From contig NZ_CP046600.1 in assembly GCF_018278905.1 (NCBI RefSeq), forward strand, positions 4,278,001 to 4,342,000: a stretch of DNA of 64,000 nucleotides. Reading direction: 5' to 3'. The position numbers and the translations under genes were made by a program. The notes below the pieces were generated by a model. The model was not told where the DNA came from and did not search any database. It was given only the letters and a program-made list of their open reading frames with translations. This stretch comes from Mycobacterium spongiae. GTDB lineage: Bacteria; Actinomycetota; Actinomycetes; Mycobacteriales; Mycobacteriaceae. Below are positions 40,350-44,219 of the stretch, piece after piece; the stretch's first letter is position 1, and every line of letters begins with the position of its first letter.

Positions 40350-43300
40350 TTAGCTGACGCCGGTTATCTCGGCGGAGAACGAATCGACGCCCAGTCCAAC
40401 CCCGCCGCTCCACGGCTCAAAGCCGGCCTGAATGCTGGTCAGATACCAGGAGTCGGTGATCGGCTCCATGGTCCTGGTGTGCTCGACAAAGCTCAGCACA
40501 TTGAAGTCCCAGGCTTCCATCGGCGAGGTCGTGACGTAGGACATCACGTTGTTCAAACCGTTATGGCCGTCCCACACCACAAAGTCTTGCCCGTCGATCG
40601 TGGTGTTGCCCACCACCGAACCCACCGGCTGGATCGGACCCTGCTGGTTGAACCAGATCATGATCTCCTGCTCATTGACCCCGGTCGTCGTCGGACTGGG
40701 ATCCAGCCAGATGTCATAGGCAGCGTTCCACACGCCGGTGGTGGGATAGGCGTAATCGACACTGCTGGTGACGGATTCGATCTGACCGAGCTGCAACGGC
40801 AGCGTGGTCTCCACCGAACTGGTGCCCCAGTGCCAGCCTTCAAAGATCGACGGATAGCCCAGCGGCGCACCGTTGGTGGGCGCGGAGCCGTTGATCTCGG
40901 TGATGGCGAACCCGTCGGAACCAACAACAATGGTCTGACCCAAGGAGTTGTTCCACGCGTTGTTCTGAACCACGTAGCCGCCGGTGGTCGTCGTCGTTCC
41001 GAACTGATCAGAGATCACCGTCCCGCCGGTCGGCGGCTCCGGTGGAGGTAGCACTGGAGGTTCGCCACCGCTAACACCGGTTATCTCGGCGGAGAACGAA
41101 TCAACGCCCAGCCCCACCCCGCCGCTCCACGGCTCAAAGCCAGCCTGAACGCTGGTCAGATACCACGAGTCGGTAATCGGCTCCATCGTCCGGGTGTGCT
41201 CGACAAAGCTCATCACATTGAAGTCCCAGGCCTCCATCGGCGAGGTCGAGACATACGACATCACGTTGTTCAAACCGTTATGGCCATCCCACACCACAAA
41301 GTTTTGGCCATCGATCGTGGCGTTGCCCACCACCGAACCCACCGGCTGGATCGGACCCTGCTGGTTGAACCAGATCATGATCTCTTGCTCATTGACCCCG
41401 GTCGTCGTGGCATCAGGATCTAGCCATATGTCATAAGCGGCATTCCAGATACCTTCGCTGGGATAGGCGAAATCAACACTGCTAGTGGCGGTTTCGATCT
41501 GACCGAGCTGCAACGGCAGCGTGGTCTCCACCGAACTGGTGCCCCAATGCCAACCCTCAAAGATCGATGGGAAACTCAACGGAGCACCATTAGTCGGGAC
41601 AGAGCCATTGATCTCGGTAATGGCAAACCCATCAGAGCTGACAAGAATGGTCTGCCCAGCGGTGTTGTTCCAGGCGTTGTTCTGCACCGCATAGCCGCCG
41701 GTGGTCGTCGTCGTTCCGAACTGATCAGAGATCACCGTCCCGCCGGTCGGCGGCTCCGGTGGGGGTAGCACTGGAGGTTCGCCACCGCTAACACCGGTTA
41801 TCTCGGCGGAGAACGAATCAACGCCCAGCCCCACCCCGCCGCTCCACGGCTCAAAGCCAGCCTGAACGCTGGTCAGATACCACGAGTCGGTAATCGGCTC
41901 CATCGTCCGGGTGTGCTCGACAAAGCTCATCACATTGAAGTCCCAGGCCTCCATCGGCGAGGTCGAGACATACGACATCACGTTGTTCAAACCGTTATGG
42001 CCATCCCACACCACAAAATTGCGCCCGCCGATGGTGGCGTTGCCCACCACCGAACCCACCGGCTGGATCGGACCCTGCTGGTTGAACCAGATCATGATCT
42101 CTTGCTCATTGACCCCGGTCGTCGTGGCATCAGGATCTAGCCAAATGTCGTAAGCGGCATTCCAGATACCTTCGCTGGGATAGGCGAAATCAACACTGCT
42201 AGTGGCGGTTTCGATCTGACCGAGCTGCAACGGCAGCGTGGTCTCCACCGAACTGGTGCCCCAATGCCAACCCTCAAAGATCGATGGGAAACTCAACGGA
42301 GCACCATTAGTCGGGACAGAGCCATTGATCTCGGTAATGGCAAACCCATCGCCAGTAACAACAATGGTCTGCCCGGCGGTGTTGTTCCACGCGTTGTTCT
42401 GAACCACATAGCCGCCAGTGGTCGTCTCCGTTCCGAACTGATCAGAGATCACCGTCCCGCCGGTCGGAGGCTCCGTTGGTGGCGGCTCCGTCGGCGGTTC
42501 ACCACCGCTGACCGGTTCGCCGTTGATCAGCAGCTCTGTCGGCGCCACAAAGGTGCCCTCATGAGCGGCCTGGAAACCCACAGTGATCGACTCCCCAGGC
42601 GCGATCGTGCCGTTGTAGCTCTCGGGAGTCAGCGTGTATTGGGTGCCCGACTGCTCTAGCTGAGAACTCCACGCATTCGTAATCGACGTGTGTTCCGGCA
42701 GCGTGAATTGCAGCTGCCAATCACTCACCGCAGTCGCACCCGAATTGGTAATCGTGTAGTCGGCCACATAACCGCCATCCCACTGCGATGTCGCCCCGAA
42801 CGTCGCCACCAAACCCGACTCACCAACAGGCGGCTCCGTCGGAGGCGGCTCGGTCGGAGGCGGCTCGGTCGGAGGCGGCTCGGTCGGAGGCGGCTCGGTC
42901 GGAGGCGGCTCCGTCGGCGGTTCGCCACCGCCGACCGGTTCGCCGTTGATCAGCAGCTCTGTCGGCGCCACAAAGGTGCCCTCATGAGCGGCCTGGAAAC
43001 CCACAGTGATCGACTCTCCAGGCGCGATCGTGCCGTTGTAGCTCTCGGGAGTCAGCGTGTATTGGGTGCCCGACTGCTCTAATTGAGAACTCCACGCATT
43101 CGTAATCGACGTGTGCTCGGGCAACGTGAATTGCAGCTGCCAATCACTCACCGCAGTCGCACCCGAATTGGTAATCGTGTAGTCGGCCACATAACCGCTA
43201 CCCCACTGCGATGTCGCCCCGAACGTCGCCACCAAACCCGACTCACCAACAGGCGGCTCCGTCGGAGGCGGCACCGTCGGAGGGGGCTCCGTCGGCGGCG

Positions 43301-44219
43301 GCTCGGTCGGAGGCGGCTCCGTCGGCGGTTCGCCACCGCCGACCGGTTCGCCGTTGATCAGCAGCTCTGTCGGCGGTACATAAGTGCCCTCATGAGCGGC
43401 CTGGAAACCCACAGTGATCGACTCTCCAGGCGCGATCGTGCCGTTGTGACTTTCCGGAGTCAGCGTGTATTGGGTGCCCGACTGCTCTAATTGAGAACTC
43501 CACGCATTCGTAATCGACGTGTGCTCGGGCAACGTGAATTGCAGCTGCCAATCACTCACCGCAGTCGCACCCGAATTGGTAATCGTGTAGTCGGCCACAT
43601 AACCGCTATCCCACTGCGACCCCACCGCGAACGTCGCCGCTATTCCAGTGCCTGCGGAACTCGCGGAATTCGACTCGACCGCCGCGATTCCAGCGGCGTT
43701 GAGTAGGGGCGCCCTGCTAAAGGTGGGCGTTGCGGCCTTGGCGGCGGCAGTGACGGTGGCCGCGGGGGCACCGCCTTCCGGGTTGCTCGCGACGCTAGCC
43801 GAAGTCAGGCTGCCCACCTCGGCAGATCCACCCTGCCCGCCCGCGCCGCCAATGCCCAGCAGCTGAGCGGCCCTGCCGCCCGTGGTCACATTCACCACGC
43901 CCAGCACGTCGCGCGCGATGCTCTGCAAAGACGTCGCGTTGACCGCTTCGGCGGCAGCCAACGACTCTGCGCTGCCCGCCAATGCGCCCACAAAACGGCT
44001 GTGATACTGCGCCACTTGGGCACTGACTGTTTGATATTCGTTGGCTTGTGCATTGAACATTGCGGTAATGGCCGCCGAAACCTCATCGGCAGCTGCCGCC
44101 AGCACCTTCGTCGTTGCGTTAGCCGCCGCGCCATTCGCGGCGATCAGTGCGGAGCCGATACCAGCGACATCAGTTGCCGCCGCTGCCAGCGTCGCCGGAT
44201 TGGCAATCACGTATGACAT
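40350..44219 (-). CDS. PE-fused modular cellulase: PE + 3x CBM2 + 3x GH12
   Basis: A 1289-aa protein. The PE domain (residues 1-95) and an Ala/Gly-rich spacer lead to three CBM2 cellulose-binding modules (about 193-294, 327-428, 467-569). Each contains SQWDxGYVADYTITNSG and VSDWQLQFTL, separated by (PPTEP)n linkers. Three GH12 endoglucanase domains follow (588-811, 827-1050, 1066-1289), joined by GGEPPVLPPPEPPTGG linkers. Each has nucleophile Glu in NEQEIMIWF (707, 946, 1185) and acid/base Glu in QAGFEPWSGG (790, 1029, 1268), 83 residues apart in all three. It would bind and cut cellulose or beta-1,4-glucans outside the cell. The PE part suggests ESX-5 export, although LAAAE replaces the usual YAAAE. 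GAAGGG precedes the ATG. M. tuberculosis celA2a/celA2b appear to be remnants of a simpler relative. Confidence 0.92.
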   Translation of the reverse strand: MSYVIANPATLAAAATDVAGIGSALIAANGAAANATTKVLAAAADEVSAAITAMFNAQANEYQTVSAQVAQYHSRFVGALAGSAESLAAAEAVNATSLQSIARDVLGVVNVTTGGRAAQLLGIGGAGGQGGSAEVGSLTSASVASNPEGGAPAATVTAAAKAATPTFSRAPLLNAAGIAAVESNSASSAGTGIAATFAVGSQWDSGYVADYTITNSGATAVSDWQLQFTLPEHTSITNAWSSQLEQSGTQYTLTPESHNGTIAPGESITVGFQAAHEGTYVPPTELLINGEPVGGGEPPTEPPPTEPPPTEPPPTVPPPTEPPVGESGLVATFGATSQWGSGYVADYTITNSGATAVSDWQLQFTLPEHTSITNAWSSQLEQSGTQYTLTPESYNGTIAPGESITVGFQAAHEGTFVAPTELLINGEPVGGGEPPTEPPPTEPPPTEPPPTEPPPTEPPPTEPPVGESGLVATFGATSQWDGGYVADYTITNSGATAVSDWQLQFTLPEHTSITNAWSSQLEQSGTQYTLTPESYNGTIAPGESITVGFQAAHEGTFVAPTELLINGEPVSGGEPPTEPPPTEPPTGGTVISDQFGTETTTGGYVVQNNAWNNTAGQTIVVTGDGFAITEINGSVPTNGAPLSFPSIFEGWHWGTSSVETTLPLQLGQIETATSSVDFAYPSEGIWNAAYDIWLDPDATTTGVNEQEIMIWFNQQGPIQPVGSVVGNATIGGRNFVVWDGHNGLNNVMSYVSTSPMEAWDFNVMSFVEHTRTMEPITDSWYLTSVQAGFEPWSGGVGLGVDSFSAEITGVSGGEPPVLPPPEPPTGGTVISDQFGTTTTTGGYAVQNNAWNNTAGQTILVSSDGFAITEINGSVPTNGAPLSFPSIFEGWHWGTSSVETTLPLQLGQIETATSSVDFAYPSEGIWNAAYDIWLDPDATTTGVNEQEIMIWFNQQGPIQPVGSVVGNATIDGQNFVVWDGHNGLNNVMSYVSTSPMEAWDFNVMSFVEHTRTMEPITDSWYLTSVQAGFEPWSGGVGLGVDSFSAEITGVSGGEPPVLPPPEPPTGGTVISDQFGTTTTTGGYVVQNNAWNNSLGQTIVVGSDGFAITEINGSAPTNGAPLGYPSIFEGWHWGTSSVETTLPLQLGQIESVTSSVDYAYPTTGVWNAAYDIWLDPSPTTTGVNEQEIMIWFNQQGPIQPVGSVVGNTTIDGQDFVVWDGHNGLNNVMSYVTTSPMEAWDFNVLSFVEHTRTMEPITDSWYLTSIQAGFEPWSGGVGLGVDSFSAEITGVS
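40353..42458 (-). repeat. Three tandem GH12-domain repeats, 717 bp period
   Basis: The domain copies run 42458-41787, 41741-41070 and 41024-40353, exactly 717 bp apart (239 codons including linker). The first two copies in protein order are almost identical base for base, while the third differs at many silent positions. Confidence 0.9.
42513..43643 (-). repeat. Three CBM2 repeats with Pro-Thr-Glu linkers
   Basis: Copies run 43643-43338, 43241-42936 and 42821-42513. Periods are 402 and 420 bp because the two linkers differ in the number of PPTEP units. Long identical blocks are shared, such as the segment encoding VSDWQLQFTLPEHTSITNAW. Confidence 0.88.

What the first reader, a model, noticed from the sequence alone, without database searches (positions are those of the whole stretch)
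40350..44219. Single PE protein with three CBM2 modules and three complete GH12 endoglucanase domains
Directly visible: one 1289-aa reading frame with a PE domain, three cellulose-binding modules and three GH12 domains whose catalytic Glu pairs are all intact and 83 residues apart. Known: PE domains mark ESX-5 substrates, and M. tuberculosis has only fragments (celA2a, celA2b) at this locus. Inference: an exported, surface or secreted multi-cellulase in a mycobacterium, possibly for biofilm cellulose, or for living with algae or amoebae. Three catalytic domains in tandem on one PE protein is unusual.
Basis: partly seen in the sequence, partly recalled or inferred. Interest (0 to 1): 0.75.

Follow-up and report, generated by a model that had tools for sequence, protein, structure and literature searches.

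The report
Mycobacterial PE protein, three cellulase domains
A mycobacterium carries one large protein with an export-type PE head, three cellulose-binding modules and three intact copies of the same cellulase domain; relatives examined have one such domain, or broken or no copies of the gene, so it looks like a locally amplified surface enzyme whose export signal is unusually altered.

Summary
One intact 1289-codon minus-strand frame (44219..40350) encodes PE + 3 CBM2 + 3 GH12. Each GH12 keeps its Glu pair, 83 residues apart. The GH12 copies form one clade, so they arose by tandem duplication in place, and are under purifying selection (dN/dS 0.12-0.21). Of 396 Mycobacterium genomes searched, 30 have GH12; only this one shows more than one GH12 per frame. 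Flanking genes mark what I recall as the celA2 locus. M. intermedium has PE-3xCBM2-1xGH12 there; six other genomes read there have frameshifted, relic or no copies. The same genome holds two more PE proteins, with three and four GH18 modules. PE-CBM2-GH12 proteins are already predicted in print (PMC4758615). New here: the catalytic amplification; no cysteine in any PE-linked GH12, CBM2 or GH18 module in hand, although cysteine-free Sec-type versions exist; and an export motif reading LxxxE, the only one of 56 aligned PE domains without Y or F. ESX-5 export is plausible, not established. No activity was measured.

The parts
40350..44219 (-). whole gene, 1289 aa: PE - CBM2 x3 - GH12 x3
43938..44219 (-). 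PE domain (aa 1-94)
   Evidence: Pfam PF00934 aa 4-94
43947..43961 (-). position of the general type VII secretion motif YxxxD/E (aa 87-91); reads L-A-A-A-E here
   Evidence: alignment of 56 PE domains, residue number
43347..43640 (-). CBM2 module 1 (aromatic triad W/W/H)
   Evidence: PF00553; triad
42939..43229 (-). CBM2 module 2 (triad W/W/Y)
   Evidence: PF00553
42516..42806 (-). CBM2 module 3 (triad W/W/Y)
   Evidence: PF00553
41799..42413 (-). GH12 domain 1, Glu707/Glu790
   Evidence: PF01670; model
41082..41696 (-). GH12 domain 2, Glu946/Glu1029
   Evidence: PF01670
40365..40979 (-). GH12 domain 3, Glu1185/Glu1268
   Evidence: PF01670
44734..45705 (-). flanking prenyl diphosphate synthase (uppS-like), locus marker
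   Evidence: PF01255 on 44734-45627
45690..46430 (+). flanking hemolysin-III family gene, locus marker
   Evidence: PF03006
37315..40086 (-). PE_PGRS gene following the cellulase gene; a PE_PGRS-like gene also follows it in M. intermedium
   Evidence: PF00934 + PF21526

Best explanation
It is a working, lineage-specific, amplified form of the PE-CBM2-GH12 cellulase at the celA2 locus. Shown by sequence and tree: the GH12 module of one ancestral gene was duplicated in place twice (copy 3 split from the line of 1 and 2, which split later), and all copies kept their catalytic pairs and are under purifying selection. Inferred: the three CBM2 modules hold the chain on cellulose or a similar beta-glucan by avidity, and the three endoglucanase modules cut internal beta-1,4 bonds along the same surface, raising enzyme dose per exported molecule rather than adding a new activity. 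Inferred: the cysteine-free chain folds in the cytoplasm without disulfides and leaves by ESX-5 through its PE head, to be surface-bound or released; this step is the least certain because the export motif lacks its aromatic residue.
For: Domains and Glu pairs; GH12 fold of unit 1; units form one clade (100/100) with 1+2 as sisters (100/97) in trees of 48 and 66 sequences; dN/dS 0.12-0.21 between GH12 copies; a single-GH12 gene with three CBM2 at the same locus in M. intermedium; ESX-5-like locus in the genome; no Cys in 1289 aa against about 11 expected from ten non-PE window genes; PE-GH12/CBM2 proteins predicted earlier in other species (PMC4758615, passages); M. tuberculosis strains made to secrete CelA2b under another signal were defective in pellicle biofilm (PMC7952908, passages), which suggests that GH12 of this locus can act as a cellulase.
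Against: LxxxE instead of YxxxD/E. CBM2-1 has His at the third binding-face position, where 109 of 114 aligned CBM2 rows have Trp or Tyr; the His rows are this module alone, fetched several times. No activity, expression or localisation data. GH12 also includes xyloglucanases and beta-1,3-1,4-glucanases, so the substrate is not fixed.
Confidence: 0.6

Rival explanations
1. Decaying or non-exported gene: the PE signal has lost function, the protein stays in the cell, and the locus is on its way to loss as in relatives.
For: LxxxE motif, the only 1 of 56 aligned PE domains without Y or F; frameshifted copy in G104, short GH12-like relics in G236, no gene found in G028, G215, G221 and G160.
Against: 1289 codons without a stop, three intact Glu pairs, dN/dS 0.12-0.21; module number grew rather than shrank. 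Both same-locus relatives whose PE domain was aligned carry F at the position (L034 intact, L027 frameshifted), so an altered motif does not by itself mark a dead gene.
Confidence: 0.2
2. Same architecture, other substrate or role: a multivalent beta-glucan (xyloglucan, mixed-linkage glucan) enzyme, or mainly an adhesin/surface coat in which CBM2 avidity matters more than catalysis.
For: GH12 includes xyloglucanases and beta-1,3-1,4-glucanases (PDB names); three CBM2; no cellulose synthase family or LPMO_10 match in the genome.
Against: Nearest solved relatives are endo-1,4-beta-glucanases, 52-53% identical (names, identity); one GH6 gene is also present; catalytic pairs conserved in all three copies.
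Confidence: 0.13
3. Copy number is an assembly artefact.
For: GH12 units 1 and 2 share identical runs of 200, 110 and 254 bases, hard for short reads; no second isolate found.
Against: Single-contig genome; unit 3 differs from units 1 and 2 at about 12% of bases, units 1 and 2 at 23 of 687; linkers differ in length. A copying error would be expected to give identical units.
Confidence: 0.05

Closest known systems
PE-CBM2-GH12 proteins of M. kansasii, M. gastri, M. gordonae, M. bohemicum, M. asiaticum (PMC4758615, passages)
   Same: PE head, CBM2, C-terminal GH12 with conserved catalytic residues; no cysteine in the GH12/CBM2 modules of those in hand
   Different: one GH12 each in the loci in hand; none to two CBM2; no uppS/hlyIII/glyA match in the fetched flanks of the 25 named loci other than M. 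intermedium L034
M. intermedium gene (L034)
   Same: same locus, PE + three CBM2 + GH12, followed by a PE_PGRS-like gene
   Different: one GH12; F instead of L in the export motif
M. tuberculosis CelA2a/CelA2b
   Same: same locus by gene order (order recalled); GH12
   Different: fragments, not a single PE-CBM2-GH12 chain (recalled; P0040-like unnamed fragments)
Thermococcus multidomain glycosidase (PMC12265866, abstract and outline seen)
   Same: several catalytic domains including two GH12, plus two CBM2 on one chain
   Different: GH5 + two GH12 with distinct properties; archaeal; two disulfides credited in GH12-1 (abstract)
Streptomyces CelB2 (1nlr) and Cel12A 1oa4 (organism names recalled)
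   Same: GH12 fold and catalytic Glu positions, 52-53% identity
   Different: single GH12 unit; four core cysteines where this protein has S/T/W/S

Membership tests
Glycoside hydrolase family 12 | profile match over curated cut-off | tested here: met
   three stretches, 138.6-144.1 bits each, cut-off 27
Glycoside hydrolase family 12 | catalytic Glu pair at the family positions | tested here: met
Glycoside hydrolase family 12 | beta-jelly-roll fold | tested here: met
   unit 1 only: TM 0.91-0.95 to 1oa4/1nlr
Glycoside hydrolase family 12 | endo-beta-1,4-glucanase activity | not testable with these tools
   none
CBM2 | profile match over cut-off | tested here: met
   three stretches, 101.0-101.3 bits each, cut-off 24
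CBM2 | three surface aromatics of the cellulose-binding face (positions recalled) | tested here: inconclusive
   W/W/Y in modules 2 and 3, W/W/H in module 1
PE family | PE domain profile | tested here: met
   PF00934 aa 4-94, 91.9 bits, cut-off 22
ESX-5 substrate | YxxxD/E after the helix-turn-helix | tested here: not met
   LxxxE; 48 YxxxE, 3 YxxxD, 4 FxxxE, 1 LxxxE of 56 aligned PE domains, some of them overlapping fetches of one gene
ESX-5 substrate | export lost without ESX-5 | not testable with these tools
   none
celA2-locus gene | lies between uppS/hlyIII and PE_PGRS/coaA/glyA | tested here: met
   gene order in the window (gene names coaA, glyA recalled); upstream order shared by L034 and L164

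The most novel reading that the evidence does not exclude
PE (ESX-5) passengers among carbohydrate-active enzymes are disulfide-free modules: to travel the type VII route, or before being captured by it, GH12, CBM2 and GH18 modules lose all structural cysteines. In this lineage the PE-enzyme genes additionally amplify their catalytic modules in tandem (3 GH12; 3 GH18; 4 GH18), building single-chain surface depolymerases, a one-gene analogue of a cellulosome/chitinosome.
Probability: 0.35. Interest if true: 0.72.

Novelty: new variant of a known kind. Interest (0 to 1): 0.55.

Why it matters
It shows that a locus which is fragmented or missing in relatives (and, from recall, fragmented in M. 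tuberculosis) is not only intact but amplified in another mycobacterium, and that the same genome carries amplified PE-GH18 enzymes too. If the cysteine pattern reflects the export route, it gives a cheap sequence hint for which mycobacterial enzymes go by type VII rather than Sec, and a reason why. The altered export motif makes a sharp natural case for how strict the type VII signal is.

Tried and rejected
Idea rejected in its strict form: 'joining a PE domain causes loss of disulfides'. One search looked perfect for GH12, but brought three GH12 proteins with Sec-type N termini and no cysteine at the four positions (P0049, P0052, P0054), and the larger tree (66 rows, P0022 left out) puts the PE proteins L024/L026 in one group with them, so there the loss probably came before the PE domain. 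For CBM2 and GH18 the rule also fails outside PE proteins: the 2410-aa frame of G184 has a Sec-type start and its modules, like those of G181 and G178, lack cysteine (L128-L130); the GH18 of L106 has no cysteine and no PE match within the 5.5 kb read.

Tested and not found: cellulose synthase (PF03552) and an LPMO helper (PF03067) in the own genome. The M. marinum ESX-5 proteome paper has no word beginning with chitin, hydrolase or glycosyl, and its one 'cellul' hit is 'cellular' (PMC11395111, term search). Literature searches for a tandem-GH12 PE protein or a cysteine/disulfide rule of type VII substrates: open PMC library only; no listed title or abstract start reports either. One search's motif scan did not flag PPE genes, so the ESX-5 assignment rests on gene order (recalled). 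A first count of differences for the fourth GH18 unit of L069 ignored a small gap; one search corrects it to about 91% identity.

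Full report
WHAT IS THERE. The minus strand of 40350-44219 holds one open frame of 1289 codons from an ATG. Pfam finds a PE domain (aa 4-94), three CBM_2 stretches and three Glyco_hydro_12 stretches. The GH12 unit repeats every 239 aa; the units carry E707/E790, E946/E1029 and E1185/E1268, each 83 apart. Aligned to 1nlr (Streptomyces lividans CelB2, name partly recalled) the first pair falls on residues 120 and 203. A model of unit 1 (mean pLDDT 84.8; unit residues 49-56 below 50) superposes on 1oa4 and 1nlr with TM 0.91-0.95. 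CBM2 units 2 and 3 read W/W/Y at the three binding-face positions, unit 1 W/W/H. The linkers behind the CBM2 units are rich in P, T and E. The protein has no cysteine.

HOW IT AROSE. Nucleotide identity between GH12 units is 0.967 (1-2), 0.876 (1-3) and 0.881 (2-3), in patches, with most differences at third codon positions. Nei-Gojobori dN/dS is 0.21, 0.15 and 0.12 for GH12 and 0.11-0.49 for CBM2. In trees of 48 and of 66 GH12 sequences the three units form one clade (100/100) with 1 and 2 as sisters (100/97). So the units come from duplications in place and remain under purifying selection; the patches (identical runs of 200, 110 and 254 bases between 1 and 2) may reflect gene conversion (inference).

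HOW RARE. A search of 396 genomes of the genus with PF01670 lists 48 matches in 30 genomes; the three in this gene share one frame, each of the other 45 is alone in its frame (a first search of 297 genomes was). In the protein collection the whole-length search returned 31 proteins, 21 of them with PF01670; the 16 with PE and GH12 are 771-822 aa long, too short for this architecture. Four of the 21 (P0018, P0020, P0022, P0023) were counted directly and have one GH12 each. That search scored only the 7996 candidates sharing most words.

THE LOCUS. Neighbours are a thioredoxin/DsbH-domain gene, hemolysin III, uppS, then this gene, a PE_PGRS, an unknown gene, coaA, glyA (coaA and glyA named from recall). 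From memory this is the order around Rv1084-Rv1093 of M. tuberculosis, with celA2a/celA2b here. M. intermedium L034 has the same upstream genes, an intact PE-3xCBM2-1xGH12 gene and a PE_PGRS-like gene after it. No uppS, hlyIII or glyA match lies in the fetched flanks of the other 25 named loci with GH12 relatives, some of which are short.

THE SISTER GENES. CBM2 occurs nine times in the genome, in four frames. One is a 164-aa frame with a Sec-type N terminus. The others are this gene and two PE proteins: PE-GH18-CBM2-GH18-CBM2-GH18 (frame of 1520 aa) and PE-CBM2-GH18-GH18-CBM2-GH18-CBM2-GH18 (frame of 2119 aa). Their GH18 units are nearly identical: 0-1 differences in 957 bases in the first; 6-12 in 900 among three units of the second, the fourth being about 91% identical to these. 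Here an assembly error in copy number is much easier than in the GH12 gene. In the genus 65 of 297 genomes have a match to this GH18 at E up to 0.001 (distant ones included; at most seven candidates scored per genome); besides this genome, three (G104, G063, G023) show two or more in one frame. So amplification of catalytic modules in such genes occurs repeatedly, and this genome is the extreme in the sample.

CYSTEINE. Among 48 distinct GH12 domains, 30 of 30 with a PE domain in the same frame have none of the four core cysteines; of 18 without one, 14 have two or four, and 4 have none: L031 cut by the fetched stretch, L033 and L041 starting at a contig end, L058 with PE and CBM2 in another frame upstream. 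Across families, all 75 CBM2, 37 GH12 and 25 GH18 module instances in frames with PE lack cysteine; non-PE frames have cysteine in 35 of 39 CBM2, 10 of 11 GH12 and 2 of 4 GH18. The non-PE frames without it are the frameshifted G104 gene (four CBM2 instances, fetched twice), L058, L117 (PE match in another frame, run of N between) and L106 (no PE found). Instance counts include several fetched pieces of the same gene and are not independent. Frames open at the 5' edge were set aside (59 modules, 58 without cysteine). Against a strict rule: three Sec-type GH12 proteins without the cysteines, PE proteins L024/L026 grouping with them, and the Sec-type G184 protein with cysteine-free CBM2/GH18. Of 120 listed GH12 proteins, some truncated, 83 show all four cysteines. 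The PE_PGRS neighbour (923 aa) also has none, so low cysteine may be general for PE proteins. My reading: PE passengers are always cysteine-free in this sample, and the loss can come before capture.

EXPORT. The genome has five EccC-type ATPases over the cut-off and one locus with EccC, a P450 on the opposite strand, two PE-like frames, EccD and mycosin, the order I recall for ESX-5. In 56 aligned PE domains (a few from overlapping fetches) the motif position is Y in 51, F in 4 and L only here; D or E follows in all. The two relatives at this locus have F. The two sister PE-GH18 proteins have Y. PMC7028111 (passages) states that YxxxD/E is required for secretion. Export is therefore plausible but is the weakest step.

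ROLE. The genome has one GH6 match, no LPMO_10 and no cellulose synthase family match, which lowers the own-biofilm reading and leaves foreign cellulose or beta-glucan as the likelier target (inference). PMC7952908 (passages) reports that M. tuberculosis strains secreting CelA1 or CelA2b make defective pellicles, the nearest experimental hint for function.

VERDICT. Real, intact and unusual; a new variant of a known kind (PE-CBM2-GH12). The additions that matter are the catalytic amplification at three loci in one genome, the cysteine-free passengers and the altered export motif.

Noticed in passing
G000:C1:4216000-4220559 (L068:3001-7560, minus): PE protein with three GH18 and two CBM2 modules in a 1520-aa frame; GH18 units differ by 0-1 bases in 957, so very recent or homogenised, or mis-assembled.
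   Followed up: partly
G000:C1:1508983-1515339 (L069:4484-10840, plus): PE protein with four GH18 and three CBM2 modules in a 2119-aa frame; three GH18 units differ by 6-12 bases in 900, the last is about 91% identical to them.
   Followed up: partly
window 37315-40086, minus: The PE_PGRS neighbour carries the linker motif NAPTxALLGRPL twice (aa 110 and 528), as if two PGRS halves were joined.
   Followed up: no
P0040, P0039, P0048, P0126, P0140: GH12 fragments starting MGTNLPTEVGQ, probably CelA2b of the M. tuberculosis complex (inference); P0040 reads YDICLD where alignment A1 has an invariant Trp.
   Followed up: no
L164, L165 (G104): In one 4.5-Mb genome both the PE-CBM2-GH12 gene and a PE gene with three GH18 modules show changes of frame.
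   Followed up: no
G184, G178, G081 and others: Frames of about 770-2600 aa, each with one more distant GH18 of this kind (about 41-46% identical); the one whose start was read (G184, 2410 aa) has a Sec-type start and an acidic N-terminal part.
   Followed up: no
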